NCBI RefSeq assembly: GCF_000284015.1
Contig: NC_016943.1
Span: forward strand, 62,001 to 126,000
Length of the DNA: 64,000 bases
Origin: Blastococcus saxobsidens DD2
Lineage (GTDB): Bacteria; Actinomycetota; Actinomycetes; Mycobacteriales; Geodermatophilaceae
Direction of reading: 5' to 3'
In this document: piece after piece, positions 2,775-19,719 of the stretch
Layout of the letters: each line of letters opens with the position of its first letter
Numbering within the stretch: position 1 is the stretch's first letter
Notes under the pieces: model-generated
What the model was told of the DNA's origin: nothing
What the model saw: the letters and a program-made list of their open reading frames with translations, nothing else
Database searches by the model: none
Made by a program: the position numbers and the translations under genes

Positions 2775-2874
2775 CCCGGCCTCCGGGAACGCCGCGCCGT
2801 TCCTGATCGTCCACCCTCTGCGCCCGGTGCACCCGCACCCGCGTCACCGCACCCTGGAGCCCCGGAGGCCGTTG

Positions 2875-4227: not shown

Positions 4228-4273
4228 GCTGTCCCAGCCCCTCCGGATGTGACGTCTCATACGACATGACGAC

Positions 4274-4283
4274 CAGACGTCTG
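4274..4283 (+). promoter_or_regulatory. Palindrome CAGACGTCTG, candidate GntR operator
   Basis: A perfect 10-bp palindrome lies 10 bp upstream of the -10 box of the GntR gene, between -35 and -10. A related GACGTC sits about 23 bp further upstream. The position fits autoregulation; assignment to this GntR protein is inference. Confidence 0.3.
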
Positions 4284-4292
4284 CTCTGGCAG

Positions 4293-4298
4293 TACCTT
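4293..4298 (+). promoter_or_regulatory. -10 box (TACCTT) of the GntR gene, leaderless
   Basis: TACCTT, seven bases, then GTG at 4306. No Shine-Dalgarno sequence precedes the start, which agrees with a leaderless transcript. Confidence 0.45.
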
Positions 4299-4305
4299 TG
4301 ACCGC

Positions 4306-5046: not shown

Positions 5047-5047
5047 G

Positions 5048-5515: not shown

Positions 5516-5653
5516 ACGACGCTGATCACAAGCTCGATCGAGGGAATGACGCATCACTGTAACGCTGCGGGGTACTGGAGCGGGTCGTGCACCGGCGTGG
5601 TGCGCCCGGCTTCCTGCCGGAACCGCAGCGCCGGTCGAACGAAGGAGAACGCT

Positions 5654-5929
5654 GTGTTCGACATTCTCGGTCTCATCGTGATCGGCCTGGTCATCGGCGC
5701 GCTCGCCCGGCTGATCCTTCCCGGCAAGCAGTCCATCAGCATCGTCGCGACCCTGCTGCTGGGTGTCCTCGGCGCGGTCATCGGTGGCTTCATCGCCAGC
5801 CTGTTCGGCGCCGGCGACATCTTCGAGCTCAACGTCGTGGGTTTCGTGATCGCCGTCGTCGCCGCTCTCGTGCTGGTCGGTGCCTACGCGGGCATGGCGG
5901 GCCGGTCGGGCCGCGCCGTCCGGCACTGA
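5654..5929 (+). CDS. GlsB/YeaQ/YmgE family membrane protein
   Basis: 91 residues with three transmembrane segments: ILGLIVIGLVIGALARLILPG, a middle segment LLLGVLGAVIGGFIASLFG, and VVGFVIAVVAALVLVGAYAG. The G-A-L-A-R-L..PG and the G.IGG repeat are diagnostic for the transglycosylase-associated (GlsB/YeaQ) family, small inner-membrane proteins linked to general stress responses. The GTG at 5654 has GGAG 6 nt upstream, and upstream codons encode nothing membrane-like. A GGGTAC about 80 nt upstream recalls alternative-sigma -10 boxes, but no matching -35 was convincing. Confidence 0.88.
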   Translation: MFDILGLIVIGLVIGALARLILPGKQSISIVATLLLGVLGAVIGGFIASLFGAGDIFELNVVGFVIAVVAALVLVGAYAGMAGRSGRAVRH

Positions 5930-5950
5930 CCCGGCCGGTCGCCGGGGGAG

Positions 5951-6589
5951 TCAGAGCTCGACGGTCTCCCCCGGGGCCAGCCGGCCGATCGGGGTCGGGG
6001 TCCCCGGGCCCCGTTCCCCGAGCAGCCCGTGGACGACGCCGAGGCCCGTGTCGTTGAGCAGCCCGTCGTGCACCGCGAACGCCTGGTCGGCGTGGACCTC
6101 CCGCACGTAGTCGATGACGTCGGCCGTCCGGGACCACGGGGCCTGCAGGGGCAGGAGCAGCGTCGCGACGGGCACCTCGGGCACCGTGAACGCGTCGCCC
6201 GGATGGAAGACCAGGCCGTCCACCAGGAAACCGATGTTCGCCACCCGGGGCAGGTCCGGGTGGATCTCCGCGTGCAGCTCCCCGTGCACCCGGACGTCGA
6301 AGCCCGCGACCGTGATCGCGTCGCCGTGGCCGACCACGTGCACCCGGTCCCCGGCCCCCTCCAGCAGGGCCGCCACGGACCGGTTGGTCCACACCTCGAG
6401 ACCCGGATTCCCCTCCAGCGCGGCACGCAGCCGGTCCGGCACCACGTGGTCCGCGTGCTCGTGCGTGACCAGGACCGCGCCGGCGCCCTCGAGCGCGGCC
6501 GGGTCGGTGAATGCGCCCGGGTCGATGACCAGACGCCGGTCCCCGTCGGTGAGCACGACGCAGGCGTGCCCGTGCTTGGTGAGCTCCAT
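5951..6589 (-). CDS. MBL-fold metal-dependent hydrolase (UlaG-like)
   Basis: 212 residues. Begins MELTKHGHACVVL. Metal-binding motif VTHEHADHVVPDRL (HxHxDH) at about 54-66, a second ligand in GELHAEIHPDLP, the acidic ligand in FHPGDAFTVPE, and the final His of AVHDGLLND. This is the compact beta-lactamase fold of UlaG-like proteins that cleave phosphodiester or lactone bonds. It converges on the GlsB gene. The start at 6589 is leaderless: CAGGAT at 6596-6601 on the minus strand, six bases from the ATG. Confidence 0.83.
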   Translation of the reverse strand: MELTKHGHACVVLTDGDRRLVIDPGAFTDPAALEGAGAVLVTHEHADHVVPDRLRAALEGNPGLEVWTNRSVAALLEGAGDRVHVVGHGDAITVAGFDVRVHGELHAEIHPDLPRVANIGFLVDGLVFHPGDAFTVPEVPVATLLLPLQAPWSRTADVIDYVREVHADQAFAVHDGLLNDTGLGVVHGLLGERGPGTPTPIGRLAPGETVEL

Positions 6590-6715
6590 GACCGCATCCT
6601 GGCACCCGGCCGCCACACCGCGCGCCGGATCCCCCGGCGCCGGATCTCCTCCTTCCGGGGGAGATCCGGCGCCGCATCGGTTATCGGGGCCGGCGGTGCT
6701 GCCGACGTCCTTCCC

Positions 6716-6934
6716 ATGATGTCCGTGACGACCGTCTTCGCCGCCGCCCGCAGCCGGGCCCACGGCCCGACGGCTGCCCTGTGGCACGCCGTCGAGGTGC
6801 ACCGGCCGGCGGCCGAGGTGGACGGCGCCTGCGAGCTGACCGTCTGCGGCACGCTGGCCCGGGTCAGCCCCGGCGAGCAGTGGCCGGTGCGCGCCACCGA
6901 CGTCTGCCCGGCCTGCGTGTCCCTGGCCCGGTGA
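6716..6934 (+). CDS. Small hypothetical protein with paired cysteines
   Basis: 72 residues starting MMSVTTVFAAARSRAHGP and ending TDVCPACVSLAR. It carries four cysteines: two in ACELTVCG and a CPAC pair at the end, spaced like a small zinc-binding knuckle. No family is recognised for certain, although short proteins of this pattern occur in related actinobacteria. Two adjacent ATGs (6716 and 6719) are possible starts; no clear ribosome binding site. It converges on the large LuxR gene, 102 bp away. Codon use and third-position G/C fit a real gene. Confidence 0.5.
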   Translation: MMSVTTVFAAARSRAHGPTAALWHAVEVHRPAAEVDGACELTVCGTLARVSPGEQWPVRATDVCPACVSLAR

Positions 6935-7036: not shown

Positions 7037-9658
7037 TCAGGCCCCCTCGGCCAATTCCGCCCGCAGCCGGGCCAGCAGATCCGAACGGCTGCTGGCACCG
7101 AGCCGCTGACGCATCCGCGAGACGTGGTGCTCGACCGTCTTCGCCGAGATGTAGAGCTGCGCACCGATCTCCCGGTAGGTCAGCCCCTCGACGACCAGTG
7201 CGGCGATCTCCCGCTCTCGTGCGCTGAGCACGCCGCCGGGCTCGGCCTGCGCCCGGCCGTGCGGGGCCGCCCCGCCCGTCGACACGTGGCGCGGCTCGTC
7301 GTCGCCGGAGAGCACCCGGGCGCACTGCAGCAGGCAGCTCCGGTCGGAGGAATCCGTCGCCCGGGCGGCGGCCTGCCCGGCCAGTCGGGAGCCGTCCCAG
7401 GTCAGCCCGATCCCCGCGAGCCGCTCGGCGGCGGTGAGGACCGACACCGCATCGATGTCCCCCACGAGGACCCGCAGCCAGCTGCGTCCCGCGTCGGCGA
7501 GCACGGCCGCGTAGAAACTGGTGCGCGCGGCGCTGACCAGTGCGGTGGCGTGCGGCTGCAGCATGGCCGGGTCGGCCATGACGATCGCCGCCTGGGCGCC
7601 GCTCCAGTGCAGGGAGGTCGACCACAACGGCGGGTTCCCCAGCCGGGCGAGCAGCGCCTCGGCCTCGGCCAGGTGCGGGGCGAGGCGCGCGGTCTCGCCC
7701 AGGCGGGCGGCGGCGACCACCAGCTCCCCCAGGGGCAGCAGCGTGAAGAGGTCGACCGGGTGCCGGACGACGGCCTCCCGCGCCCGGCCCCACGCCCGCA
7801 GCAGGGCGGGTAGGTCGCTCGCGCGCCGGGCCAGCCCCACCTCCAGAGCGCGCAGGAAGAGCTCGTCGCGCGGCTCCAGAGGTCCCCGTCCCGACCGGGC
7901 CTCGTTCATCCGCTCCACAGCGATGGGCATGCGGCCGCGCAGCATCGCCGTCCAGGCCAGCAGCAGCAGGTGGCGCGACCGGGCGGGCGGCCCGCCGATG
8001 TCCGCGGCCAGCGCCCGCTCGAGCACCGACTCCGCGCTGCCCAGCTCACCGGTGTGCAGCGCGACCAGCGCGGCGAGCGCGGACGGGGTGTCCATCAGCA
8101 GCGCGGTGCGCCCGACCGGTTCGAGCAGCGTGGCTGCCCGGGTCAGCGTGGAGAGCGCGGTCGTCGCCGCCTCGGCCGTGCTCGGCCCCGGGCGGATCGA
8201 CTCCAGCACGCCTCGGGCCATCAGCGATTCGCAGCCGGAGACCAGGTGCGGCGACCAGCGTCCGGCCGCACCCTCGGTCGAGGCCAGCTCCGCCTCCGCA
8301 TCCTCCCGGGCCCCCACCGCGAGCAGTGCCAGCGCCGTCGAGCCGGCCCGCTGCGGTCCGGCCACCCGGTAGAGCTCGGCGGTGCTGGTGAGCAGTCCTC
8401 GCTGCGCCAGCACGGCGGCGGTGATGCCGGCGGCCTGGCGGTGGCCGGGAGCCGACTCGTCCCGCAGCGCCGGATCGGCCCACTGCAGCGCGCCGTCGAG
8501 GTCTCCGACGAGGGCGGCCGCCAGCGCGCGGCGCACAGCCAGTGGGGCGGCGGGTGCACCGGCGTCCACGGCCTCCGACAGCAGCGCCCCGGCCAGCCCC
8601 GGGTCCTCGGCGAGGGCCGCGTCGGCCTGCTCGAGCAGCAGCCGTGCCACCCGCGGTTCCCGCACCCGGTCGGCGGCGAGCGCGCGGGCCAGCTCGACCG
8701 GCTCCTCGCCGCGGTCGAGCAGCAGCGTGAAGAGGCGCCGGCGCACCGACCGGGTCACGTCGTGCGGCGTGGTCGACAGCAGGGCGCTGCCGATGGCCGG
8801 CACGACCCGCCCGGTGGCGAGCAGCGCACCCGTCGTCTGAACGCGCTGGACGAGGTCGGTGGCGTCCGCGGTGCCCACGAGCTCGGCCAGCAGCTCGGCG
8901 TCCAGCGGCGCGCCCGCGGCAAGGGCGTGGAGCACCGCCCGGGTGCACGGATCGAGGTCGGCGAGGGCGGCGCAGATCTGCTCGCTCACCACGCCGGGCG
9001 TCTCGGCCATCCCCACCGGTCCGGGAACGGCACCTCGTGGTGCGAGCGCTGCGCCCTGCCGCGCGGCGCCCGCCGCGGCGAGCGCGCGGAGCATGGGCTC
9101 CACCAAGGCCGGCAGACCACCGGTCTGGCGCAGCACCGGGTCGACCACCGCCGCAGCCGCCGGGCCGAGGTGGTGCTCCGCGCAGCCGCGGACGACGTCG
9201 CGGTCGAGGTGACCGAGCACCACCAGGCGCCGGTCACCCGCCATCGCCTCGATCAGTTCCTGCAGCGCCGGCGGCCGCGGCCACGGGCGGTAAGCCACCA
9301 CGATCCCGACCAGCGGATGCCGCAGCAGCACCCGCAGCCGGCCGGCGGCGCCGGGGGTGAGCCGGTGTGCGTCGTCCACCAGGACCACCAGCCGGTCGGT
9401 CACCTCGCCCGGCTCCGGCGCGGCCTGAGCGTCCACGACCGCCACGCCGGCCCGCCGGTAGAGCCTCACCAGCTCCGCGAGCAACGTGGTCTTGCCGGTG
9501 CCCCCGGGACCGAGGACGGCGACGTGGGTGGCACCGTCGCCGGCGACCTGCTCATGCACCACCCGGCGGGCCATCGCCTGGGGGGAGCCGGGCCAGCAGG
9601 GGTCCTCCTCGGTCTTGCGCATCGGTGTCGGAACGGGTGTGCGGACGTCGACGCTCAT
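7037..9658 (-). CDS. iniR: Large ATPase/LuxR-type regulator, IniR-like
   Basis: 873 residues. A P-loop GPGGTGKTTLL lies near 49-59, a Walker B VVLVDDAHRL near 94-103, then a long helical repeat region. The C-terminal LuxR helix-turn-helix (about 805-865) reads LSAREREIAALVVEGLTYREIGAQLYISAKTVEHHVSRMRQRLG. The size and plan match LAL/STAND regulators, and the place next to iniB-iniA-iniC-like genes mirrors the mycobacterial locus, where iniR lies divergent to iniBAC. The ATG overlaps the stop of the Hsp70-like gene (ATGA), so the two are translationally coupled. Naming it IniR rests on architecture and synteny. Confidence 0.82.
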   Translation of the reverse strand: MSVDVRTPVPTPMRKTEEDPCWPGSPQAMARRVVHEQVAGDGATHVAVLGPGGTGKTTLLAELVRLYRRAGVAVVDAQAAPEPGEVTDRLVVLVDDAHRLTPGAAGRLRVLLRHPLVGIVVAYRPWPRPPALQELIEAMAGDRRLVVLGHLDRDVVRGCAEHHLGPAAAAVVDPVLRQTGGLPALVEPMLRALAAAGAARQGAALAPRGAVPGPVGMAETPGVVSEQICAALADLDPCTRAVLHALAAGAPLDAELLAELVGTADATDLVQRVQTTGALLATGRVVPAIGSALLSTTPHDVTRSVRRRLFTLLLDRGEEPVELARALAADRVREPRVARLLLEQADAALAEDPGLAGALLSEAVDAGAPAAPLAVRRALAAALVGDLDGALQWADPALRDESAPGHRQAAGITAAVLAQRGLLTSTAELYRVAGPQRAGSTALALLAVGAREDAEAELASTEGAAGRWSPHLVSGCESLMARGVLESIRPGPSTAEAATTALSTLTRAATLLEPVGRTALLMDTPSALAALVALHTGELGSAESVLERALAADIGGPPARSRHLLLLAWTAMLRGRMPIAVERMNEARSGRGPLEPRDELFLRALEVGLARRASDLPALLRAWGRAREAVVRHPVDLFTLLPLGELVVAAARLGETARLAPHLAEAEALLARLGNPPLWSTSLHWSGAQAAIVMADPAMLQPHATALVSAARTSFYAAVLADAGRSWLRVLVGDIDAVSVLTAAERLAGIGLTWDGSRLAGQAAARATDSSDRSCLLQCARVLSGDDEPRHVSTGGAAPHGRAQAEPGGVLSAREREIAALVVEGLTYREIGAQLYISAKTVEHHVSRMRQRLGASSRSDLLARLRAELAEGA

Positions 9659-11781
9659 GCCGCGGTTCCCCGGTCGCTCCCGGTGGGCTCGGCCGGCGGG
9701 GCCGTCTCCGGCGCCGTTTCCGTCTCCGGCGCCGTCTGCGTTCCCGTCTCCGGCGTGGTGCCGGTCTCCGGCGCGGAGCCGGTGTCCGACCCCGGTCCGG
9801 TAGCGCTGGTGGTGGTGGGGGTCGCCGGCGGCGGGGTGCTGGTGGTGGGGGTCGCCGGCTCGGGTGCGCCGGTGGTGGGGGTCGAAGGCGACGGGGTGCT
9901 GGCCGGCGGCGGGGTGCTGCTCGGGGGGATGCTGGCCGGTGGAGCGCTGGTGGTGGATGTGCTGGCCGGTGGCGTCGTCCCGGTGGTGGGTGCCGGGCTG
10001 GTGGGCGTACCGGGCGCCACGTCTGCCGACGGGCTCGGGCCGGTGGTGGTCTCCGCGGGGGCAGGGCTGCCGGCAACGGTCGCCACGTCGGGGTCCTCGG
10101 TGCCGGTACTCCCGCCGGCCGGTCGCCCACCGGACGTGGCACGGACGGGTTCGTCCGCCGGGTCCGCAGCGGCGGGGGCGGCCATCCGCCGCGCCGCCGC
10201 CAGGGACGTCCCGGTCACCTGGTCGGCGCCCTCGGCCGCCGCGGTGCCGGGGGTGACGTCACCGGTCTGGTCACCGGCGGCCTCCGCTGCCGCGGCCGGC
10301 CACCAGGAGGACGGCCACCCGGCGTTGCGGTCCTCGGCCGCGGCGAGCGCGTCCGCCGTGCCCGTGCCGGCCGTCTCCCGGCTCTGCGGGAGCCCGAAGG
10401 CGGCCGGTACCGCCAGGAGCGTCACGAGCACCCCGCCGACGACGACGACCCGGCGGCCACTCCGCCGGCCGGCCGGCGCGACCGGCGATCGGGTGCGCGA
10501 CGGCCGCGCGGCGGGTGGGCGCCGGACGGCCTGCCGCCGGGGGGCCACCGCGGCGGCCGGATGACCGGTGTCGTCGCCGTCGGATGCGACCGCGGCCGGT
10601 TCCCCGTGGTCGCCGTCGGCCGGCTTCGTGCCGCCTCCCGCCCCGGCGCCGGCGACCAGGGCGTCCAGACCCAGCCGTGCGGCGCCGAGGGCGAGGGCCA
10701 GCGCAGGGTCCTCGGGCACGAGCAGCGGCCGGCCCAGCTCCGCCGAGAGCAGTTCGGCGACCAGGGGCATCCGCCCGGCCCCGCCGACGAGGAGCACGCC
10801 GTCGAGGTCGGTCACCCGGAGCCCGGCGCTCTCGACGGTGCGGCGCAGGGTGTCGACGGTGCTGCGGACGTCATCGGTCAGCAGTTCCTCGAGGTCCTCC
10901 CGGACCACCCGGAGCGTCGTCGTCCCGGCGGGCAGGTCGACGTCCAGCCGGACGTGGGTACCGGTGGAGAGCGCCTCCTTGGCCGTCACGCACTGGGCGC
11001 GGAGCCCGGCCAGCGCCGCCCGCACCTCAGGTGTCGCCCGCGGTCCGCCGGACAGCGCGGCCACGACGTGGCCGAGGACGGCGTCGTCGACGTCGCGCCC
11101 GCCCCACGCGAGCGGAGCGGGCGGCACGGCGACGTGCGCCGGGCCGCCGTTGGTGGCAGCCCGGACGACCGCCGTGTCCAGGGTGCTCGCGCCCAGGTCG
11201 TAGACCGCGACGGTGCGGCCGGCGCCGTCTCCGTCCGCGAGCTGGTGACGGGCGGCCGCCACCGCGCCGGACGCCAGGAAGACCGGGCCGGTGGCGTGCT
11301 CGGCCAGCGCCTCGGTCAGGGCGGCCTGCCGGTGCGGCCCCCACGAGGGGGGCACGGCGAGGACCGTCCAGGACGTCGGACGGCCCTCCTGCGCCGCTGC
11401 GAGGGACTGGACGGCGGCCACCACCGCGGCCACGAGGTCGGCGGCCTGCACCGGGTGCCCCGCCACCAGCAGGGGGACCGGGACGCCGACCCGGGACATC
11501 AGGTGGCGGGTGACCGGGGCCGCCGTCCGCGGGCGGGCATCGGCCTGATCGATCAGGCCGATGCCACCGACCGCCGCCAGCCGCACGGCGGCCGCGGCGC
11601 ACACCGCGTCATCGACCGGCACGGGGGCCGCCGTGCCGTCCGGGTGGCAGACGGCCGCGGTGACCGTCTCGTCACCGATGTCGATGCCGAGCGCATAGGG
11701 CTCATCGAAATCCCGGCCCCCCGCCTGACGGCTGCATCCAGCGGTGGCCTCGCGAGTGGAACTCCGTTGTTCACGATGCAC
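9655..11781 (-). CDS. Membrane-anchored Hsp70-family protein with Pro/Thr-rich tail
   Basis: 708 residues. About 30-390 form an actin-like Hsp70 ATPase: LGIDIGDETVTAAV (phosphate 1), VAVYDLGASTLDTAVV (phosphate 2), GGRDVDDAV, and LLVGGAGRMPLVAELL (adenosine). There is no canonical Hsp70 peptide-binding domain. Instead an Ala-rich linker leads to one membrane segment near 440-462 (VVVVGGVLVTLLAVPAAFG). A ~240-residue tail follows that becomes a run of Pro, Thr, Ser and Glu (PTTSTPPPATPTT), presumably outside the membrane. It is first in an operon with the IniR-like gene. The GTG at 11781 is leaderless. Confidence 0.82.
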   Translation of the reverse strand: MHREQRSSTREATAGCSRQAGGRDFDEPYALGIDIGDETVTAAVCHPDGTAAPVPVDDAVCAAAAVRLAAVGGIGLIDQADARPRTAAPVTRHLMSRVGVPVPLLVAGHPVQAADLVAAVVAAVQSLAAAQEGRPTSWTVLAVPPSWGPHRQAALTEALAEHATGPVFLASGAVAAARHQLADGDGAGRTVAVYDLGASTLDTAVVRAATNGGPAHVAVPPAPLAWGGRDVDDAVLGHVVAALSGGPRATPEVRAALAGLRAQCVTAKEALSTGTHVRLDVDLPAGTTTLRVVREDLEELLTDDVRSTVDTLRRTVESAGLRVTDLDGVLLVGGAGRMPLVAELLSAELGRPLLVPEDPALALALGAARLGLDALVAGAGAGGGTKPADGDHGEPAAVASDGDDTGHPAAAVAPRRQAVRRPPAARPSRTRSPVAPAGRRSGRRVVVVGGVLVTLLAVPAAFGLPQSRETAGTGTADALAAAEDRNAGWPSSWWPAAAAEAAGDQTGDVTPGTAAAEGADQVTGTSLAAARRMAAPAAADPADEPVRATSGGRPAGGSTGTEDPDVATVAGSPAPAETTTGPSPSADVAPGTPTSPAPTTGTTPPASTSTTSAPPASIPPSSTPPPASTPSPSTPTTGAPEPATPTTSTPPPATPTTTSATGPGSDTGSAPETGTTPETGTQTAPETETAPETAPPAEPTGSDRGTAA

Positions 11782-11787
11782 CGGGGG

Positions 11788-11793
11788 AACGTA
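11788..11793 (-). promoter_or_regulatory. -10 box (TACGTT) of the hsp70-iniR operon, leaderless
   Basis: On the minus strand TACGTT is followed by six bases (CCCCCG) and GTG at 11781. No Shine-Dalgarno is present. The box is about 70 bp from the repeat pair that may control the divergent iniB promoter. Confidence 0.45.
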
Positions 11794-11863
11794 ACTCTGG
11801 GCAACCCGATTGGGAGGTGCCTGACGTCTCTTGGGGTGGATGTGACGTGAGGGAGAGGCGACA

Positions 11864-11910
11864 CCCCGATCCCCCTAACGCTCCGTCAGTACCCGATCCC
11901 CCCTAGGGGG
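11864..11910 (+). promoter_or_regulatory. Repeat pair and palindrome in the iniB/hsp70 divergent region
   Basis: CCCGATCCCCCTA (ending 11877) recurs as CCCGATCCCCCCTA at 11892-11905, about 28 bp on, almost three helical turns. The second copy runs into a perfect 12-bp palindrome CCCCCTAGGGGG (11899-11910). These lie in the 235-bp gap between divergent genes, 100-150 bp upstream of iniB. They are candidate binding sites for the IniR-like protein. A TTGACT at 11960-11965 could be the -35 of the iniB promoter; no good -10 was found. Confidence 0.4.
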
Positions 11911-12016
11911 TCACCGAGTGGGGGGTCGTTCCCCGATGGGCTGCCGACCGCGCGGTGCGTTGACTGCTCCCGGCAGCCGGCCACGACGGACGGCCCGGAC
12001 CTCAGGAGAAACAGCA

Positions 12017-13588
12017 ATGTCTGACCTCTACACCTCCCTGCTCGACTTCATCCTCGACCTGCTCCGCGACCCGGAGGCGGCCGAGCGGTTCGAGGAGGAC
12101 CCCGCGGGCGCGCTCGAGGCCGCCGGCCTCGAGGACCTGACCGCGGCCGACGTCGAGGCGATCATGCCGATGGTCGCCGACTTCGCCCCCGTCGCCGTCA
12201 GTGCCGGCGCCGGTGGCGGTGGCGGTGGCGGCCACGCCGGCTGGGGCAAGGACGACGACGACCACTACAAGCCGCCGATGAAGGACCACTGCGACGACGA
12301 CGAGAAGCCGGTCGAGAAGCCGGCGAAGTGCGACGACGAGGAGAAGCCGGCCGAGGGCGGCGGCGGCGGCCACGAGCCCGCCGCGATCGAGCACCTCAAG
12401 TACATCTCGCACAGCTACCACTACGAGGTCGACGCGTCGCACAACGTCTGGGGCGACACCTACAAGGTCTTCGGCGAGGACATCGTGCTGAACACCGGTG
12501 ACCACGCCGTCGTCGCCGGCGATGACATCGAGGACTCGACCGTCGACACCAGCGTCGACAACAGCGACCACTCCATCCACGTGACCGGCGACGGCAACGC
12601 CGTCGGCGAGGACAACCACGTCGACAACTCCGACAACTCGGTCGACGTCGACGTGGACGTGCGGGACTCGCTCAACGGCTCGTTCAACGACAAGTCGGAC
12701 CACTCCACCACCGTCGGCACGGTCGTCAGCGGCAGCAACAACCACGCCTACGTCGACAACAGCCAGGAGTACAAGTTCGAGATCGAGGACGTCTTCATCG
12801 GCGACGGAACCACCGTCATCGAGGACTCCACGAACGTCGGCAACACCTACACCGACTCGTTCAACGACAACTCGGACAACTCCGTCCGCATCGAGGACTC
12901 GTTCCAGGACAACTCGGTCGACAACTCGGTCAAGATCGACGCCGAGATCGAGGACTCGTTCAACACCGACAACTCGGACAACTCGACGACCATCAGCGAC
13001 TCCGGGAACGACAACTCGACGCACCTGGACGTGGCCGTCGACGACTCGTTCAACACCGACAACTCGGTGAACGACTCGGGCAACGACAACTCGACGACCG
13101 TCAGCGACTCGGGCAACGACAACTCGACGAACGTCAGCGACTCGGGCAACGACAACTCGACGAACGTCGACATCGAGGACTCGTTCCAGGACAACTCCAC
13201 CGACGTCGACGTCGACGACTCCTTCAACACGGACAACTCGGTCGAGGTCGAGGACTCGTTCAACGACAACTCCGACAACTCGGACAACTCGACGAACACG
13301 GAGGTCGAGGTCGAGGACTCGTTCAACGACAACTCCGACAACTCGACGAACACCGAGGTCGACGTCGACGACTCGTTCAACGACAACTCCGACAACTCGA
13401 CGAACACCGAGGTCGACGTCGAGCTCGAGGACTCGTTCAACGACAACTCCACGGAGATCGAGGACTCGTTCCAGGACAACTCCACCGAGGTCGACGTCGA
13501 GGTCGAGGACTCCTTCCAGGACAACGACCTGGTGGACGACTCCGGCAACAACAACGACCTGTCCACGACTCTCGAGGGCGCCGCCTGA
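12017..13588 (+). CDS. iniB: IniB-like protein with acidic Asp-Asn-Ser repeats
   Basis: 523 residues. Residues 1-60 (LYTSLLDFILDLLRDPEAAERFEEDPAGALEAAGLEDLTAADV split over two helices) match the N-terminal domain of mycobacterial IniB. A Gly-rich patch (GAGGGGGGG) and a Lys/Asp segment with two Cys follow. From about 170 to the end the chain is an acidic repeat of 8-16-residue units such as DSFNDNSDNSTNTEV and SDSGNDNSTNV, in which hydrophobic residues alternate with Asp/Asn/Ser. This is the look of a beta-solenoid or filament. No signal peptide or membrane segment is visible. AGGAG lies 8 nt before the ATG. First gene of the rightward ini operon. Confidence 0.85.
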   Translation: MSDLYTSLLDFILDLLRDPEAAERFEEDPAGALEAAGLEDLTAADVEAIMPMVADFAPVAVSAGAGGGGGGGHAGWGKDDDDHYKPPMKDHCDDDEKPVEKPAKCDDEEKPAEGGGGGHEPAAIEHLKYISHSYHYEVDASHNVWGDTYKVFGEDIVLNTGDHAVVAGDDIEDSTVDTSVDNSDHSIHVTGDGNAVGEDNHVDNSDNSVDVDVDVRDSLNGSFNDKSDHSTTVGTVVSGSNNHAYVDNSQEYKFEIEDVFIGDGTTVIEDSTNVGNTYTDSFNDNSDNSVRIEDSFQDNSVDNSVKIDAEIEDSFNTDNSDNSTTISDSGNDNSTHLDVAVDDSFNTDNSVNDSGNDNSTTVSDSGNDNSTNVSDSGNDNSTNVDIEDSFQDNSTDVDVDDSFNTDNSVEVEDSFNDNSDNSDNSTNTEVEVEDSFNDNSDNSTNTEVDVDDSFNDNSDNSTNTEVDVELEDSFNDNSTEIEDSFQDNSTEVDVEVEDSFQDNDLVDDSGNNNDLSTTLEGAA

Positions 13589-13616
13589 GAGTCGGTCCCC
13601 AGACCGGATGGGAACG

Positions 13617-13654
13617 ACCCGGTGGCGGTGGTGGACCGCGCGCCGCCACCGGGT
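13617..13654 (+). terminator. 12-bp hairpin between iniB and iniA (attenuator or processing site)
   Basis: ACCCGGTGGCGG (13617-13628) pairs perfectly with CCGCCACCGGGT (13643-13654) around a 14-nt loop, 28 bp after the iniB stop. There is no T tract. In a 183-bp gap inside one operon it may lower expression of the GTPase genes relative to iniB or protect the iniB mRNA 3' end. Confidence 0.5.
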
Positions 13655-13771
13655 GATCCGTCCCGAGCCCGGCCCCCTCTCGCCCTCCCGGGCAGGATCG
13701 GGGCCGGGCTCGGGCCTGTGCGGGGGTCGATCTCCTGGTGTGATGTCGGCAGGCACGTCGGAAGGGGCACC

Positions 13772-15616
13772 GTGGCAACGCCGCTCGAGTTGATCGACCG
13801 GGCCCGCGCCCTCGCGGAGACGGGTGGCCGGGCCGACCTGGAGCGCCGGCTGGCCCTGGTCCGCGAGCGGGTCGGGGCGGCCAGCGTCCGGGTGCTCGTC
13901 GTCGGGGAGCCCAAGCAGGGCAAGAGCCAGCTGGTCAACGCGCTCGTCGGGGCGCCGGTCTGCCCGGTGGCCGACGATGTCGCCACCGTCGTCCCCACGG
14001 TGATCCGCGAGGGTGTGGCACCCCGGGCGGTGCTGGTGCACAGCGTGGCGGCCGGTGGCACGGCCGACGGCCGAGCGGTGCCCGCGGCAGAGGGGCCGGT
14101 CGAGCGCACCCCCGTACCGATCGAGTCGCTCTCGGCGCGCACCACCCGCGGTGCGGACGCCGGCGACGGCCGGCACCTCGTCCGGGCCGAGGTGGAGCTG
14201 CCCCGCCGGTTCCTGGCCGGGGGCCTGGAGCTCGTGGACACCGCAGGGGTCGGGGGCATCGGGACCGGCCACTCCCTGCAGACCGTCGACCTGCTGCCCA
14301 GCGCCTCCGCGGTGCTCGTGGTGTCCGATGCGTCGCAGGAGTACACCGGCCCGGAGATGGCCTTCATCCGCCAGGCCGAGGCGCTGTGCCCCACCGTGGT
14401 GTTCGCGGTGACGAAGACCGACGTGCACCCGTCGTGGCGGTCGATCGTCGAGCTGGACCGGGCGCACCTCCGTCGGCAGGGGATCGAGGCGCCGCTGTTC
14501 CCGGTCTCGGCGTCCCTCGGCATCCTCGCGGTGCAGCAGAAGGACGCCGAGCTGCACGCCGAGTCAGGGCTGGCGCCGCTGGCCGAGCACCTGCGCCGGG
14601 AAGTCCTCGGCCGGGCCGAGGCGCTGCGCCAGCGGTCGACGGTGCACGACCTCCGCTCGGTCACCGAGCAGCTGGCGCTGTCCCTGCGCGCCGAGCTCGC
14701 CGCGCTCGAGGACCCGGCCGGCAACGACGCCCTGGTGGAGGAGCTGACCCAGGCCCGCGCCCGGGTCGAGGAGCTGCGTCGCCGGTCGTCGCGCTGGCAG
14801 CAGATGCTCGGCGACGGCGTCACCGACCTGATGGCCGACATCGACTACGACCTGCGGGACCGCTCCCGGGTGCTCATCCGCGAGGCGGAGGAGGCCATCG
14901 ACGCCCGCGACCCGGGGCCGGTCTGGGCCGAGTTCACCGAGTGGCTCGACGAGCGGCTGGCCACCGCGGTGACCGACAGCTACGTGTGGGCCGGGCAGCG
15001 GTCGGAGTACCTGGCCGAGCAGGTGGTCGAGCAGTTCGCCCGCGACGGCGGCGTCGTCGCTCCCGAGCTGGACATCGGGTCGCCCGCGGAGGCGCTCGGC
15101 GCCCTGGTCGACGTCGCGAGCATGGACGACGGCTTCCTCCCGATGCGGGAACGGCTGCTCATCGGCCTCCGCGGCTCCTACACCGGCGTGCTGATGACCG
15201 GGCTGGTCACCAGCCTGGCCGGGCTCGCCGTCATCAACCCGCTCTCGCTGGCCGTCGGCGTCGTCCTGGGCCGCAAGGCCTACCAGGACGACAAGGTCGC
15301 CCGGCGGCAGCGGCGGCAGAGCGAGGCCAAGCAGATCGTCCGGCGGCACCTCGACGAGGTGGTCTTCCAGGTCGGCAAGCAGCTGAAGGACCAGCTGCGC
15401 CTGGTTCAGCGGACCCTGCGCGACCTGATCACCGACACCGTCGACGAGCTCTCCCGCACGCTCGGCGACGCCCTCGCCGCGGCGCAGCGGTCGACGAAGG
15501 CCGCCACGGCCGAGCGCACCGCCCGGATCCGGGCGGTGCGGACCCAGCTCGAGGTGCTGGACCGGTTCGCCAAGGAGATCGCCCGGCTCGAGGCGGCACC
15601 GGCGGCCCTGCGGTGA
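13772..15616 (+). CDS. iniA: Dynamin-like GTPase, IniA type
   Basis: 614 residues, close to mycobacterial IniA (about 640). GTPase motifs: G1 GEPKQGKSQLVNALVG near 44-59, G3 DTAGVGG near 156, G4 TKTD near 213. Long helical stalk segments follow, with a hydrophobic paddle or membrane insertion near 468-502 (YTGVLMTGLVTSLAG, INPLSLAVGVVLG). Mycobacterial IniA is a bacterial dynamin-like protein that remodels membranes and is induced by cell-wall inhibitors. The next gene overlaps by GTGA and is a second GTPase, so a heteromeric pair is likely. The GTG at 13772 has GGAAGGGG upstream. Confidence 0.85.
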   Translation: MATPLELIDRARALAETGGRADLERRLALVRERVGAASVRVLVVGEPKQGKSQLVNALVGAPVCPVADDVATVVPTVIREGVAPRAVLVHSVAAGGTADGRAVPAAEGPVERTPVPIESLSARTTRGADAGDGRHLVRAEVELPRRFLAGGLELVDTAGVGGIGTGHSLQTVDLLPSASAVLVVSDASQEYTGPEMAFIRQAEALCPTVVFAVTKTDVHPSWRSIVELDRAHLRRQGIEAPLFPVSASLGILAVQQKDAELHAESGLAPLAEHLRREVLGRAEALRQRSTVHDLRSVTEQLALSLRAELAALEDPAGNDALVEELTQARARVEELRRRSSRWQQMLGDGVTDLMADIDYDLRDRSRVLIREAEEAIDARDPGPVWAEFTEWLDERLATAVTDSYVWAGQRSEYLAEQVVEQFARDGGVVAPELDIGSPAEALGALVDVASMDDGFLPMRERLLIGLRGSYTGVLMTGLVTSLAGLAVINPLSLAVGVVLGRKAYQDDKVARRQRRQSEAKQIVRRHLDEVVFQVGKQLKDQLRLVQRTLRDLITDTVDELSRTLGDALAAAQRSTKAATAERTARIRAVRTQLEVLDRFAKEIARLEAAPAALR

Positions 15617-17139
15617 CCGCCCCGCCGGACGGCGTGCAGGCCACCACGCTCGTCGACGAGGTCCGCCTGCTGCTCGACGAGGCCCTCGACGCCTACCGCG
15701 ACGACCCGGACGCGCTCCCGGTCCTCCGGGCGCAGCGCGAGCGGTTGGACGAGCCGTTGCGCATCGCGCTGGTCGGCCGGGTGAAGGCCGGGAAGTCGAC
15801 GCTGCTCAACGCCCTGGTCGGGGAACGGCTGGCGCCGACCGACGCCGGCGAGTGCACCCGGGTCGTCACCTGGTACCGCCACGGCTCCGTGCCGCGGGTC
15901 GCGCTGCACCCGGTGGACGGTCCGCGGCGGGTGCTGCCGGTCCGGCGGGCCGACGGTGCGCTGCGGCTGGACCTCGCCGGGACGCCACCGGAGGACGTCG
16001 AGCGCCTCGTGGTCGACTGGCCCACCGCGGGGCTCGCCGTGGCGACGCTGCTGGACACCCCCGGCATCTCGTCGCTGGACGTCGGCATCAGCGCCCGTGC
16101 GTGGGAGCTCCTGGCCCGCGACGAGCTGCCGGTCGCCGACGCGGTCGTCTTCCTCACCCGGCAGATGCAGCCCGAGGACCTCGACTTCCTGGCCCGCTTC
16201 CAGGAGGCGACCGGTGGGTCCGGGGTGCACACGACGACGATCACCGTGCTGTCCCGGGCCGACGAGGTGGGCGCCGGCCGGGTGGACGCGCTGCTGGCCG
16301 CGCAGAAGGTGGCCCGCCGGATGTCCGGGGACCCCGCCGTGCGGGCGCTCAGCCAGGCGGTCGTCCCGGTGGCCGGCCTGGTCGGGCTCGCCGGCCGGAT
16401 GCTCCGGCACCGGGAGTTCGTGGCCCTCCGGAGCCTCGCCGTGGCAGAGCGGGCCGACCTCGAGGCGATGCTGCTGAGCGCCGACCGGTTCTGCCGCGAC
16501 GACGCACCGGTCCCCGTCTCGAGGGAGCTGCGCGCCACGCTGCTCGAACGGCTCGGCTTCTTCGGCATCCGGCTGGCGGTGGCGCTGATCCGCACCGGGG
16601 TCTCCGACGCCGGGGAGCTGGGCGACCAGCTGGTCCGCCGCAGCGGTCTGGCGGAGCTGCAGCGGCTGCTCATCGTCCACTTCCTCCGGCGCAGCGCCGC
16701 GCTCCGGGCGGCGACCGCCGTCCGCCTGATCGAGCGCCTGCTCCGCCAGCGGCCGGTCGCGGACACCGGCCCGCTGAGGGCGCGGGTCGAGCGGCTGCAG
16801 ATCGGCTCCCAGGAGTTCGTGGAGCTCGAGCTGCTGGCGCGCTCCCGGGCCGTCGACGGGCCGATCCCGCCCGAGTTCCGGGCGGAGGCCGAACGCCTCC
16901 TCGGCGCCGAGGGGCCGGACCCGGCCGATCGGCTCGGCCTCGCGGCGGACGCTCCGCCGGAGGAGCTGCGTGCCGCCGCGCTGGCTGCCCTCGACCGCTG
17001 GCGGGCGCGCGCCGCCGACCCGCTGGCCGGGCGGCCCGCCGTGGACGCCTACGCGGTCCTGGCCCGGTCCTGCGAGGCGGCGGTGGCGACGCTCGACGCC
17101 GCCGGCTCAGGGTCGCGGGCCGCGCAACCAGCTCCGTGA
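15613..17139 (+). CDS. iniC: Dynamin-like GTPase, IniC type
   Basis: 508 residues (mycobacterial IniC is about 490). G1 GRVKAGKSTLLNALVG near 55-70, a Thr-containing switch (ECTRVVTWYRHG), G3 DTPGISS near 148, G4-like LSRADE near 213. The rest is helical, with a moderately hydrophobic segment FFGIRLAVALIRTG near 315. Its start GTG overlaps the iniA stop, showing coupled translation. The last 33 bp overlap the 3' end of the convergent membrane-protein gene. IniC follows IniA in the known mycobacterial operon, and order and size match here. Confidence 0.85.
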   Translation: MTAPPDGVQATTLVDEVRLLLDEALDAYRDDPDALPVLRAQRERLDEPLRIALVGRVKAGKSTLLNALVGERLAPTDAGECTRVVTWYRHGSVPRVALHPVDGPRRVLPVRRADGALRLDLAGTPPEDVERLVVDWPTAGLAVATLLDTPGISSLDVGISARAWELLARDELPVADAVVFLTRQMQPEDLDFLARFQEATGGSGVHTTTITVLSRADEVGAGRVDALLAAQKVARRMSGDPAVRALSQAVVPVAGLVGLAGRMLRHREFVALRSLAVAERADLEAMLLSADRFCRDDAPVPVSRELRATLLERLGFFGIRLAVALIRTGVSDAGELGDQLVRRSGLAELQRLLIVHFLRRSAALRAATAVRLIERLLRQRPVADTGPLRARVERLQIGSQEFVELELLARSRAVDGPIPPEFRAEAERLLGAEGPDPADRLGLAADAPPEELRAAALAALDRWRARAADPLAGRPAVDAYAVLARSCEAAVATLDAAGSGSRAAQPAP

Positions 17140-17694
17140 CGACCCGACGAACAGGGTCACCAGGGCGACGACGACGAGCGCCGCCTGGACCAGGAACGAC
17201 AGCTCGTCGACCGTGGTCCCCCCGGCGACCAGGCTGAGCACGAGGGGGAGCAGGAACAGCGTCAGCACCCCGGCGACGGCGAGCACCCAGCGCATGCCGG
17301 GCGTGCGCCGCAGCGCGAGCACCAGGCAGAGGGCGGCCACGACGACCAACCCGGCGGCGGTACCGAGCATGCCGTCGACCGTCACGGTCACCCCGGTCTC
17401 GAGGACGTCGGGGGCCAGGGCCGGGTCGGTCTCCAGCGCCGCCTCGGTGACCCGCGCCCGGATGGTGTCCCGGTTGACCAGGGCGGTGGCGAGACCCAAA
17501 GCTCCGGCCGCGAAGCTGCCCGCCCAGCACCAGGCCGAGGCCCGCAGTGCGGCCGGGCGCCGCCCGTCGGCCGGCGTGTCCGGGGGCGGCGGCGCGGGGC
17601 TGAACGCCGGCCGCGGTGGTGGCCGGCGGGGGAGCCGGTCACCGGGTGCCCCGGCAGGGCCGGGGGGCACCGGCGGGCTGGACGGATCGGACAC
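17107..17694 (-). CDS. Integral membrane protein of unknown function
   Basis: 195 residues. The first 50 are Pro-rich and hydrophilic (PPVPPGPAG, PAFSPAPPPPDTP). Four hydrophobic segments follow: SAWCWAGSFAAGALGLATAL, MLGTAAGLVVVAALCLVLAL, WVLAVAGVLTLFLLPLVLSL and FLVQAALVVVALVTLFVG. A mid-protein loop (NRDTIRARVTEAALETDPAL) lies between the first two. I know no named family; Pro-rich small membrane proteins of this plan are common in actinobacteria. The gene converges on iniC and overlaps it by 33 bp; function within the ini locus is not implied. A similar architecture appears in the membrane protein at 23963-24676. Confidence 0.7.
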   Translation of the reverse strand: MSDPSSPPVPPGPAGAPGDRLPRRPPPRPAFSPAPPPPDTPADGRRPAALRASAWCWAGSFAAGALGLATALVNRDTIRARVTEAALETDPALAPDVLETGVTVTVDGMLGTAAGLVVVAALCLVLALRRTPGMRWVLAVAGVLTLFLLPLVLSLVAGGTTVDELSFLVQAALVVVALVTLFVGSSRSWLRGPRP

Positions 17695-17710
17695 GGAACC
17701 TCCTCGACGG

Positions 17711-17798
17711 GCGCCTGCGGTCCAGCGTGGGGTACGGCCGGTGCCTTGTCACGGGCCGCCGCGACGCGCCTGCGGCCCAGCGGGGGGTACGGCCGGTG
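17711..17798 (+). repeat. 33-bp direct repeat pair upstream of the TnpB-like gene
   Basis: Positions 17711-17743 and 17766-17798 are the same 33 bases with two mismatches. Both begin GCGCCTGCGG and contain GGGGTACGGCCGGTG. Starts are 55 bp apart. A 9-mer GCCTTGTCA follows the first copy (17743-17751) and recurs at 17852-17860. The pair fills the 189-bp gap between the divergent membrane protein and TnpB-like gene. Iterated binding site, attachment scar and slippage product are all possible. Confidence 0.6.
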
Positions 17799-17883
17799 GC
17801 CGGCTCAGCTCCCGGTCGGTTCGGCAGCAAGGTGAGATCTGCTGTGCGTAAGCCTTGTCAGTGGTATCGGGCAGTCTGCGGCC

Positions 17884-19719
17884 ATGTCCTCCTCACGCCC
17901 GCGGCTGCCGACCCATGTGGTCGCGCCACCGTCGGGCGTCAGCGTCGGCAGCAGGCTGCGGGTGACCGACTGGGAGCAGCAGTTGTTGGCTGCGGTCGGC
18001 ACGCATCTGTCCCGGGCGCGGGCTACGGACCTGGCCGCGGCGCAGCGGCGGGAGCGGGCCAACGACCGGCAGAAGGCGCTCTCGGCGCGGTTCGGCATCC
18101 ACTCCCGGTACGCGGGCAGCATCTGTGTGGACAACGACGCCGCCGCACGCGCTGTGAAGGAGCAGCTGTGGGCACACCAGCAGCGACTGCAGGCCGCCTT
18201 TCGGCATGTGGAAGCGCGCACCGCGCTGCCCAGCAGAGCGGCCTGCTGCGGCTGCGGAAAGCGCCGCTGCCACCGGTGCGGGGGCGGCTATGTCACGGAG
18301 AACGAGCGAGTGATGAAGCGCCGCCGACTCGACGTCCTGCGCGCCGAGCTCGCCGAGGTGCAGCGCCGCCGGTCCGAGGGCCGGTACGGGGCGTGCCTGG
18401 GCGGCAAGCGGCTGGCCACCACCCGCCACCACCTGAACCAGGCCGGCCTGACCGAGCGGCAGTGGCAGCAGCTCTGGCTCCGGCGGCGTGCGTGGTTCGG
18501 CTGCGTCGGCAACGCCGGCGTTCTGGGTGGCAATCCGTGCCTGAGCCTGCGGCAGGACGCTCCGGACCGACCCGGTGAGTGGTTCCTGACCGTGTCGGCG
18601 CCCGGACCGGTGCGGGCCCGGTTCGGGTGTGGCAGCCAGGTCCGGCTCACCCACCCGGTGCCGCTGCACCACCGGCGCGAAGAGCTGGAGGAGCGGCTGT
18701 CCGCCCGCCGCGCCGTCCGGCTCGACGTCGACTTCACCATCGACCGGCGCGGCCGGGGTCGGGTGATGCTGCGCGTGGCGTGGGTGCGGCGAGCGCAGCC
18801 GGCGCTGACGCTGCAGCAGGCCCGGCTCGGCGGCCTGGTCGGAGTGGATCTGAACGCCAATCACCTCGCCACCGCGAGGCTCGACCAGGACGGCAACCCG
18901 ATCGGGCGGCCAATCCGCATCCCCCTCGATCTCGACGACCTACCGACGACCACGCGGGACGCACGGCTGCGCGAGGCGATCACCGCCCTGCTCGACTTCG
19001 CCGCAACGACCGGGGCACAGGCGGTCGCGGTCGAGGAACTCGGCTTCACCGACGAAACCACCCGGGAGAAGCACGGCCGCAACCGGCGGTTCCGCCGGCT
19101 GCTGTCCGGCTTCCCCACCCTGGCGTTCCGCCGCCGGCTGGCCGCGATGGCCGCCACCGCCGGGCTCGCGGTCATCAGCGTCGATCCGCGCTACACCAGC
19201 AAGGTCGGCGGGCGGGACTGGCAGCGAGTGCTCACCGGCGGCCCTACGGCCCCACTCACCTCACAGACGAGCGTGACTCGGCACCACGGTGCCGCGGTCG
19301 CGATCGGCCGACGCGCCCTCGCGCACGGCCTCACGGCCGGACCCCGCGGTCCGGAGCGCCGATCCGCACCCCACCAGCGCCGCCGCCCGGACACCCGTCC
19401 GGCCGGCCGCGGGGATGGAAGCACGAGCAGCCGGTCTGCTCCGGTGCGGGCACCCGGCGCGCCCGCGAGGCCGACCCCGCGCGACCGCGCCGGCGCACGA
19501 GCTGCCCGCCGCACCCCGGCGGCCGTCTCGGCGCCCGCCCCACCCCCCTTCGGTGGGCGCGGACCCGGTGAGACAGGCCGCCGGGCGGGCAGAACGCCGC
19601 GCATAGGTTCCGCGGCGCCACAGCCCCACCGGGCTGACGGCACAACGCCAGCAGGGCGTGACGGCTGCGCGACTTCCGCACATCCATCACACCCTGCTGC
19701 CGAACCTAGCTCCCGGTGA
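17884..19719 (+). CDS. TnpB-related RuvC-like protein without transposase partner
   Basis: 611 residues. A Cys-rich knuckle CCGCGKRRCHRC lies near 120-131, then basic helices. The RuvC core begins GVDLNANHLATARLD (Asp near 321) and VAVEELGF (Glu near 384), as in TnpB. The third part is altered: DPRYTSKVGGRDW lacks the usual CxxC zinc finger after YTS, and the closing motif reads TRHHGAAVAIGRRAL, with His where TnpB has the catalytic Asp of D.NAA.NI. A ~135-residue Arg/Pro-rich tail follows. No TnpA lies nearby. NCBI-style 'TnpB-related accessory protein' fits. The ATG is six bases after CAGTCT, the host-like leaderless layout. Confidence 0.75.
   Translation: MSSSRPRLPTHVVAPPSGVSVGSRLRVTDWEQQLLAAVGTHLSRARATDLAAAQRRERANDRQKALSARFGIHSRYAGSICVDNDAAARAVKEQLWAHQQRLQAAFRHVEARTALPSRAACCGCGKRRCHRCGGGYVTENERVMKRRRLDVLRAELAEVQRRRSEGRYGACLGGKRLATTRHHLNQAGLTERQWQQLWLRRRAWFGCVGNAGVLGGNPCLSLRQDAPDRPGEWFLTVSAPGPVRARFGCGSQVRLTHPVPLHHRREELEERLSARRAVRLDVDFTIDRRGRGRVMLRVAWVRRAQPALTLQQARLGGLVGVDLNANHLATARLDQDGNPIGRPIRIPLDLDDLPTTTRDARLREAITALLDFAATTGAQAVAVEELGFTDETTREKHGRNRRFRRLLSGFPTLAFRRRLAAMAATAGLAVISVDPRYTSKVGGRDWQRVLTGGPTAPLTSQTSVTRHHGAAVAIGRRALAHGLTAGPRGPERRSAPHQRRRPDTRPAGRGDGSTSSRSAPVRAPGAPARPTPRDRAGARAARRTPAAVSAPAPPPFGGRGPGETGRRAGRTPRIGSAAPQPHRADGTTPAGRDGCATSAHPSHPAAEPSSR
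19649..19699 (+). terminator. 13-bp inverted repeat at the TnpB-like / enoyl-CoA hydratase junction
   Basis: CAGCAGGGCGTGA (19649-19661) pairs with TCACACCCTGCTG (19687-19699), 12 of 13 pairs, around a 25-nt loop. It lies just before the two convergent stops and could serve as a bidirectional terminator. A smaller hairpin CAGCCC-CACC-GGGCTG is at 19621-19636. Both are inside the reading frame of the TnpB-like tail. Confidence 0.45.

What the first reader, a model, noticed from the sequence alone, without database searches (positions are those of the whole stretch)
7037..17139. Complete iniR / iniB-iniA-iniC-like locus with an added membrane Hsp70
A large ATPase-LuxR regulator diverges from an IniB-domain protein and two dynamin-like GTPases, the plan of the mycobacterial isoniazid-response locus. 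Here an Hsp70-like ATPase with a membrane anchor precedes the regulator and overlaps it by ATGA, which ties it to the same function. This suggests a cell-envelope stress system in a genus without mycolic acids, in which a transmembrane Hsp70-like sensor may work with the IniR-like protein.
Basis: partly seen in the sequence, partly recalled or inferred. Interest (0 to 1): 0.75.

Follow-up and report, generated by a model that had tools for sequence, protein, structure and literature searches.

The report
Hsp70-IniR-IniBAC stress locus with operator
A soil actinobacterium carries the same kind of regulator-plus-membrane-remodelling gene set that mycobacteria switch on when drugs attack their cell wall, and comparison with relatives suggests that an Hsp70-like gene normally belongs to the set and points to the short DNA repeat through which the regulator may work.

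Summary
Window 7037-17139 (IniR 89% identical to Blastococcus capsensis) encodes an IniR-like ATPase/LuxR regulator, an Hsp70-like ATPase overlapping it by ATGA, and a divergent iniB-iniA-iniC operon. Hsp70 is not an addition: of 59 related loci with at least 22 kb, 56 carry it and 54 carry all five genes; a dnaK-like gene beside iniR is in print for M. smegmatis (PMC5760070). A membrane anchor is optional: 37 of 103 Hsp70 relatives show none. The protein is an ATPase domain without a substrate-binding domain.

New here as an interpretation: a predicted IniR operator, direct CCCCTAA repeats upstream of a CCGAT element (window 11872-11938). CCCCTAA lies within 300 nt upstream of 125 of 164 distinct iniB genes against 0 of 132 iniA, 0 of 131 iniC, 0 of 144 iniR, 7 of 136 hsp70 and 20 of 2840 random windows. 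A two-part pattern occurs once in this genome, at iniB, and in three genomes precedes iniB genes away from iniR. Binding is untested; the founding promoter paper could not be read; the M. tuberculosis repeats are in print as a putative G-quadruplex (PMC5515968).

The parts
7037..9658 (-). IniR-like STAND/AAA ATPase with C-terminal LuxR (GerE) domain
   Evidence: NF038181 400 bits over residues 30-870 (cut-off 750 not reached), PF00196 54.5 bits; 79 related loci
9655..11781 (-). Hsp70-like protein: ATPase domain only, hydrophobic helix at residues 445-463, Thr/Ala/Pro-rich tail of 245 aa
   Evidence: PF00012 85.6 bits, profile 104-369 of 599; phmmer to DnaK/Hsc70 structures; helix and tail; 4-nt overlap with iniR
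11872..11879 (+). predicted IniR box 1, CCCCTAAC
11900..11909 (+). predicted IniR box 2, CCCCTAGGGG (degenerate, palindromic)
   Evidence: 31 nt before the anchor, where 13 of 20 Geodermatophilaceae regions have a box at -31 to -34 (looser box definition); sequence
11931..11938 (+). promoter-proximal CCCCGATG element
   Evidence: CCCGATG in 59 of 73 distinct intergenic regions, 5.25 expected from shuffles
12017..13588 (+). IniB-like protein: IniB N-terminal domain plus Asp/Asn/Ser-rich repeats
   Evidence: NF038175 72.5 bits, cut-off 40; repeats; the only match to this family in this genome
13772..15616 (+). IniA, dynamin-like GTPase
   Evidence: 6j72 430 bits over residues 7-611; PF00350
15613..17139 (+). 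IniC-like dynamin-family GTPase, GTG start overlapping iniA by 4 nt
   Evidence: PF00350 45.5 bits; P-loop similarity to IniA

Best explanation
This is an IniR-controlled iniBAC envelope- or membrane-stress locus, with an Hsp70-like ATPase-domain protein as a normal fifth member. Shown by sequence: the five genes, their co-occurrence, and a conserved array of CCCCTAA direct repeats ending in a CCGAT element upstream of iniB. Inferred: IniR, a MalT-like STAND activator, oligomerises on these repeats when it senses a signal (trehalose in mycobacteria; unknown here) and switches on iniB-iniA-iniC. IniA/IniC then remodel or seal the plasma membrane by GTP-driven fission while IniB acts as a repetitive scaffold or filler. 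Speculative: the Hsp70-like protein, overlapping iniR in most lineages and lacking a substrate-binding domain, modulates the system from the cytoplasmic side (by holding IniR inactive or by handling IniB) rather than refolding proteins.
For: Gene identities. Co-occurrence: all five genes in 54 of 59 loci with at least 22 kb; 4-nt overlap at 59 of 83 hsp70-iniR junctions; protein distances of HSP, IniR, IniA and IniC correlate at r 0.86-0.95 over 96 loci, not corrected for species relationship. Operator: CCCCTAA in 63 of 73 distinct intergenic regions, 1.5 expected; a box at -31 to -34 from the anchor in 15 of 16 mycobacterial, 13 of 20 Geodermatophilaceae and 40 of 61 other regions; CCCCTAACN{45,55}CCCGATG in 49 of 114 genomes with an IniR match of at least 180 bits and in 5 of 184 others, 43 of 55 matches within 5 kb of iniR, backwards-read control 3; mycobacterial form once each in 20 of 298 genomes, all 20 among the 24 with IniR over the cut-off and within 2.1 kb of it, control 0; upstream of iniB genes away from iniR in G215, G223 and G125. 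Published: M. tuberculosis IniR gives a strong ChIP-seq peak in front of iniBAC (PMC5760070, section 11 read); IniA performs membrane fission in vitro (PMC6715688, passages).
Against: IniR stays below the NCBIfam equivalog cut-off. I have no binding, expression or phenotype data for this genus. Of 128 distinct iniB genes with no other iniB just upstream, 24 lack an exact CCCCTAA. The strict pattern misses 65 of 114 IniR genomes. Both patterns were written from loci of these same groups, so their hit rates there are not independent; what is independent is their scarcity elsewhere and the hits at distant iniB genes. The signal is unknown in a genus without trehalose mycolates. Nothing tests what the Hsp70-like protein does.
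Confidence: 0.75

Rival explanations
1. Transmembrane Hsp70 sensor: the Hsp70 spans the membrane, its outer tail monitors the wall, and its ATPase state is passed to IniR.
For: The window's protein has a helix at 445-463 and a 245-residue tail; 66 of 103 relatives have a hydrophobic helix after the ATPase domain, 57 of them with at least 100 residues beyond it; 4-nt gene overlap with iniR.
Against: 37 of 103 relatives have no such helix, among them all 14 named Micromonospora loci, although gene order is kept; 14 of 15 long tails printed are low-complexity; in 14 distinct loci hsp70 is not next to iniR.
Confidence: 0.15
2. Hsp70 is a brake on IniR, as MalK, MalY and Aes are for the STAND activator MalT (comparison recalled, not tested).
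For: Overlap with iniR at 59 of 83 junctions; kept with iniR in L022, L025 and L026, which have no iniB.
Against: Pseudonocardia-type loci separate the two genes; five mycobacterial loci have IniR without hsp70 next to it.
Confidence: 0.35
3. Hsp70 is a chaperone or assembly factor for IniB rather than a partner of IniR.
For: The head-to-head hsp70/iniB pair survives rearrangement (14 distinct loci without hsp70-iniR adjacency; extra hsp70/iniB pairs in L173 and L179).
Against: No substrate-binding domain; L022, L025 and L026 keep hsp70 without iniB.
Confidence: 0.3
4. The CCCCTAA array belongs to another regulator or a sigma factor, and IniR binds elsewhere.
For: No binding data at this resolution; HpoR is reported to bind another motif in the iniBAC promoter (PMC13413693, passages read).
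Against: Presence follows IniR across 298 genomes (Fisher p 8e-19, not phylogenetically corrected) and follows iniB to sites away from iniR.
Confidence: 0.15
5. The C-runs act as a G-quadruplex (TTAGGGG on the other strand) rather than as a protein operator.
For: PMC5515968 (one table passage read) lists the stretch upstream of Rv0339c, which contains two TTAGGGG, as a putative G-quadruplex.
Against: A C-run stretch of quadruplex type covers a CCCCTAA in only 14 of 164 distinct iniB upstreams and there is none at window 11840-11960; what is conserved is the register to the CCGAT element.
Confidence: 0.05

Closest known systems
iniR-iniBAC of mycobacteria (Rv0339c to Rv0343, tags partly recalled; MMAR_0612)
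   Same: Divergent STAND/LuxR regulator, IniB-domain protein, IniA and IniC; CCCCTAA boxes upstream of iniB in 17 of 17 unnamed mycobacterial loci
   Different: Score below the IniR equivalog cut-off; IniB is Asp/Asn/Ser-rich; no iniB*; boxes at about -31 and -59 against -33 and -48 at mycobacterial iniB*; host without mycolic acids (recalled)
iniR locus of M. smegmatis with a dnaK-like gene (PMC5760070, section 10 read)
   Same: Hsp70-like gene beside iniR, with iniA and iniC
   Different: The paper says iniB is missing there and gives one sentence on dnaK, with no function
MalT of E. coli (recalled apart from the domain comparison in PMC5760070)
   Same: STAND ATPase activator with C-terminal HTH; direct-repeat sites near the promoter
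   Different: Different ligand, operator and targets
DnaK/Hsc70
   Same: Actin-type ATPase domain, E 1e-18 to solved Hsp70s
   Different: No substrate-binding domain; NEPTAAA is ASGAVAAA here (that its Glu is catalytic is recalled)

Membership tests
IniR (NF038181 equivalog) | score of at least 750 bits | tested here: not met
   400 bits over nearly full length: filed as IniR-like, not IniR
IniR (functional) | binds and activates the iniB promoter | not testable with these tools
   only a predicted operator
IniB-domain proteins (NF038175) | N-terminal domain over 40 bits | tested here: met
   72.5 bits, residues 7-55
IniA | full-length similarity to a solved IniA | tested here: met
   6j72, residues 7-611, E 1e-127; the GRKAY stretch near the lipid-interacting loop is identical (that it holds the paper's R488/K489 is my assumption)
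IniC | second dynamin-like GTPase directly after iniA | tested here: met
   PF00350 45.5 bits, 4-nt overlap
Hsp70 chaperone (DnaK) | ATPase domain plus substrate-binding domain | tested here: not met
   profile match stops at 369 of 599
Hsp70 chaperone (DnaK) | Glu in the EPTAAA motif (catalytic role recalled) | tested here: not met
   0 of 20 Geodermatophilaceae rows have Glu or Asp at position 172; 39 of 67 other rows have Glu; 13 of 13 mycobacterial rows have Asp

The most novel reading that the evidence does not exclude
IniR is a MalT-type activator that reads phased CCCCTAA repeats conserved from non-mycolate soil actinobacteria to the tuberculosis-type locus. Its regulon is defined by iniB genes, copies away from iniR included, and the Hsp70-like protein is an ancestral control component of this module that was lost from beside iniR in the tuberculosis-type lineage.
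Probability: 0.5. Interest if true: 0.7.

Novelty: new member of a known kind. Interest (0 to 1): 0.55.

Why it matters
iniBAC promoters are used as reporters of cell-wall drug action (search listing), yet a 2026 paper still calls the transcriptional regulation of iniBAC unclear (PMC13413693, passages read). A short predicted operator shared across the order makes IniR binding directly testable in harmless soil actinobacteria, shows the gene set in many bacteria without mycolic acids, adds iniB genes away from the locus to the candidate regulon, and makes the little-noticed Hsp70-like gene a regular member of the set.

Tried and rejected
Considered and rejected: (1) Hsp70 as a lineage-specific addition. 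(2) A sensor domain in the Hsp70 tail: 14 of 15 long tails printed are low-complexity by eye, L154 differs. (3) Hsp70 as strictly IniR's or strictly IniB's partner: counter-examples both ways. (4) Further operator sites in this genome: one match to each of two patterns, the same place. (5) G-quadruplex as the conserved feature.

Led nowhere: structure prediction (switched off), so the IniB repeat fold and the Hsp70 pocket were not modelled. The first anchored scan was too strict, and its short loci (L085-L108) hold little of the iniB upstream; one search showed the mycobacterial sites. Literature: searches found no paper; two unrelated ones; one, not read; some searches gave listings (25 of 46 papers shown), of which I read sections or passages of PMC5760070, PMC13413693, PMC6715688, PMC11077946 and PMC5515968 only. 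In these I saw no CCCCTAA or direct-repeat IniR site, but the M. tuberculosis stretch is printed in PMC5515968 as a putative G-quadruplex. Alland 2000, which characterised the M. tuberculosis iniBAC promoter, is not held, so overlapping elements may be in print there.

One search used 73 of 101 regions after removing similar ones. One search had no anchor in 4 of 101 and used a looser box than CCCCTAA. One search counts Hsp70 from 100 bits; its 16 'head to head, not before iniR' loci include L071 (a distance-threshold artefact; one search has it adjacent) and L143 (same contig as L060), hence 14. One search took IniB hits of at least 40 bits with at least 200 nt upstream. Sets overlap (L063/L140, L060/L143, L173/L174); one search counts identical upstreams once. 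One search covers the best Hsp70 per locus, not always the one beside iniR (L123, L129); I moved L039, L052 and L071 by hand to 'no helix'; L051 is cut off by its contig end. The random windows came from the same loci. Loci were chosen by me for spread or to follow up odd hits.
Full report
What is there. The window lies at 62001-126000 of a 4.88-Mb single-contig genome whose IniR-like protein is 89% identical to that of Blastococcus capsensis. Five genes form one block: an IniR-like regulator (7037-9658, -), an Hsp70-like ATPase (9655-11781, -; overlap ATGA), then divergently an IniB-domain protein (12017-13588, +), IniA (13772-15616, +) and an IniC-like GTPase (15613-17139, +; overlap GTGA). 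IniR-like: NF038181, 400 bits over almost the whole length, below the equivalog cut-off of 750. IniB: NF038175, 72.5 bits, over its cut-off. IniA aligns over residues 7-611 with the solved M. smegmatis IniA (430 bits).

Is Hsp70 part of it? Of the 79 loci kept from a scan with the regulator alone, 59 have at least 22 kb: IniA and IniC in 59, IniB in 56, Hsp70 in 56, all five in 54. L065 has a weaker Hsp70 match (92 bits); L067 and L069 have none in the stretch held. In 40 further loci chosen for spread, 35 have all five. Among 17 loci that I take for mycobacterial (same unnamed genus, IniR over the cut-off), five with a long Gly-rich IniB (L123, L126-L129) lack hsp70 between iniR and iniB, and two of these (L123, L129) have an Hsp70-like gene beyond iniC; I call this the tuberculosis-type plan after the description in PMC5760070. 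So Hsp70 is the usual state. This is not wholly new: Boot et al. 2017 (PMC5760070; abstract and sections 10-11 read) state that M. [quoted passage not shown] In other orders of the class 10 of the 246 sampled genomes have an IniB-domain match; I fetched stretches of seven of these, and six show all five genes, in different arrangements.

What the Hsp70 is. It is an ATPase domain without a substrate-binding domain. The DnaK/Hsc70 alignment puts ASGAVAAA where Hsp70s have NEPTAAA, so the Glu that I recall as catalytic is lost; in 13 of 13 mycobacterial rows the phosphate-1 Asp is Ser. The window's protein has a hydrophobic stretch at 445-463 and a 245-residue Thr/Ala/Pro-rich tail. Among 103 relatives 66 have such a stretch, 57 with at least 100 residues beyond it; 37 do not, including all 14 named Micromonospora loci. 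Of 26 tails printed, 15 have a long outer part; 14 are low-complexity by eye and L154 has a different outer part. The membrane anchor is therefore an option, not the core.

Hsp70's partner. At 59 of 83 hsp70-iniR junctions the genes overlap by 4 nt. But 14 distinct loci, 13 of them Pseudonocardia, keep hsp70 head to head with iniB and not before iniR, while L022, L025 and L026 keep hsp70-iniR and have no iniB. Both partner models stay open.

The operator. The hsp70/iniR-iniB intergenic regions share CCCCTAA repeats and a CCGAT element. Among 73 sufficiently different regions CCCCTAA occurs in 63 (1.5 expected from dinucleotide shuffles) and CCCGATG in 59 (5.25 expected); the most frequent 7-mer in any of 200 shuffles reached 31. 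Relative to the anchor, with a slightly looser box, one recurs at -31 to -34 in 15 of 16 mycobacterial, 13 of 20 Geodermatophilaceae and 40 of 61 other regions, and a second at -48 in 15 of 16 mycobacterial but at -55 to -59 in 19 of 20 and 47 of 61 of the rest. Within 300 nt upstream CCCCTAA is found at 125 of 164 distinct iniB genes (34 of 34 mycobacterial) against 0 of 132 iniA, 0 of 131 iniC, 0 of 144 iniR and 7 of 136 hsp70, 20 of 2840 random windows and 3 of 168 on the opposite strand. Not every iniB has it: of 128 with no other iniB just upstream 104 do, of 36 behind another iniB 21 do.

Genome-wide test. CCCCTAACN{45,55}CCCGATG gives 55 matches in 54 of 298 genomes of the order; the backwards-read control gives 3. 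This genome has exactly one, at window 11872-11938. Of 114 genomes with an IniR match of at least 180 bits, 49 match; of 184 without, 5 (Fisher p 8e-19, not corrected for relatedness). 43 of 55 matches lie within 5 kb of iniR. Of the other 12, two precede iniB on another contig (G213, G112), three precede iniB genes whose fetched stretch holds no iniA, iniC or hsp70 and at most a weak 31-bit IniR-like match (G215, G223, G125), one has no iniB near (G062), one was not fetched (G207), and five are in genomes without IniR (not fetched). A mycobacterial form, CCCCTAAYN{24,26}CACCGATC, matches once in each of 20 of 298 genomes, control 0; all 20 are among the 24 genomes whose IniR passes the cut-off, all lie within 2.1 kb of iniR by my reading of the coordinates, and all have the 25-nt spacing; four such genomes are missed. 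Both patterns were written from loci of these groups, so the hit rates are partly circular; the scarcity elsewhere and the hits at distant iniB genes are not. In 17 of 17 mycobacterial loci boxes precede both iniB* and iniB. In L022, L025 and L026, which lack iniB, no intact box is left.

In print. PMC5515968 (one table passage) lists the stretch upstream of Rv0339c, with two TTAGGGG, as a putative G-quadruplex. A quadruplex-type stretch covers a box in only 14 of 164 iniB upstreams and is absent at window 11840-11960, so this is unlikely to be the conserved feature.

How it probably works. Shown: genes, co-occurrence, conserved repeats. From the literature: IniR activates iniBAC, responds to trehalose and binds in front of iniBAC in M. 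tuberculosis (PMC5760070); IniA does GTP-dependent membrane fission (PMC6715688, passages); IniA and IniC promote vesicle release (PMC11077946, passages). Inferred: IniR oligomers sit on the phased repeats and recruit RNA polymerase, as MalT does (recalled). IniB's C-terminal part changes in make-up between lineages (Asp/Asn/Ser, Gly/Val/Leu, Gly/Ala) while its N-terminal domain is kept, which suits a filler or scaffold. The signal in a genus without mycolic acids is unknown.

Novelty and limits. The locus is a new member of a known kind. The operator reading, the distant-iniB candidates and Hsp70 as a regular component I did not find described, within the limits told under Tried and rejected. 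The system is patchy: 9 of 51 genomes of this family have an IniR match of at least 180 bits.

Noticed in passing
window 17884-19719 (+): TnpB/Cas12f-like ORF (PF07282 21.8 bits, below its cut-off of 26.3) beside the iniBAC block; no similar protein (E 1e-10) in the fetched loci.
   Followed up: partly
window 31783-33483 and 33480-35096 (+): A second pair of adjacent ORFs with P-loops (by eye), overlapping by 4 nt; the first gives a Dynamin_N match (24.9 bits, 36.9 with its neighbours).
   Followed up: no
window 2704-6802 and 17107-20551: Flanking genes (GntR regulator and metallo-beta-lactamase-fold protein by Pfam; phosphoesterase-like, small membrane and enoyl-CoA hydratase-like by eye) recur in 13-19 fetched loci, mostly Geodermatophilaceae.
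   Followed up: partly
L115, L117, L120, L133: A second Hsp70-like gene directly after iniR.
   Followed up: no
L029, L033, L044, L061, L144 and others printed: Hsp70s without a long outer tail carry a proline-rich motif, roughly PPRPPV followed by PL, near the C terminus, perhaps a docking site.
   Followed up: no
upstream of hsp70 in Micromonosporaceae- and Pseudonocardiaceae-type loci: A second conserved element, TTCGTACCA(G/A)A, near the hsp70 start (TTCGTAC in 15 of 73 regions, 0.56 expected), possibly the hsp70-iniR promoter.
   Followed up: no
genome G164 C4:15746-16867; L164 and L166: IniR matches in pieces, suggesting decayed or split copies in some lineages.
   Followed up: no
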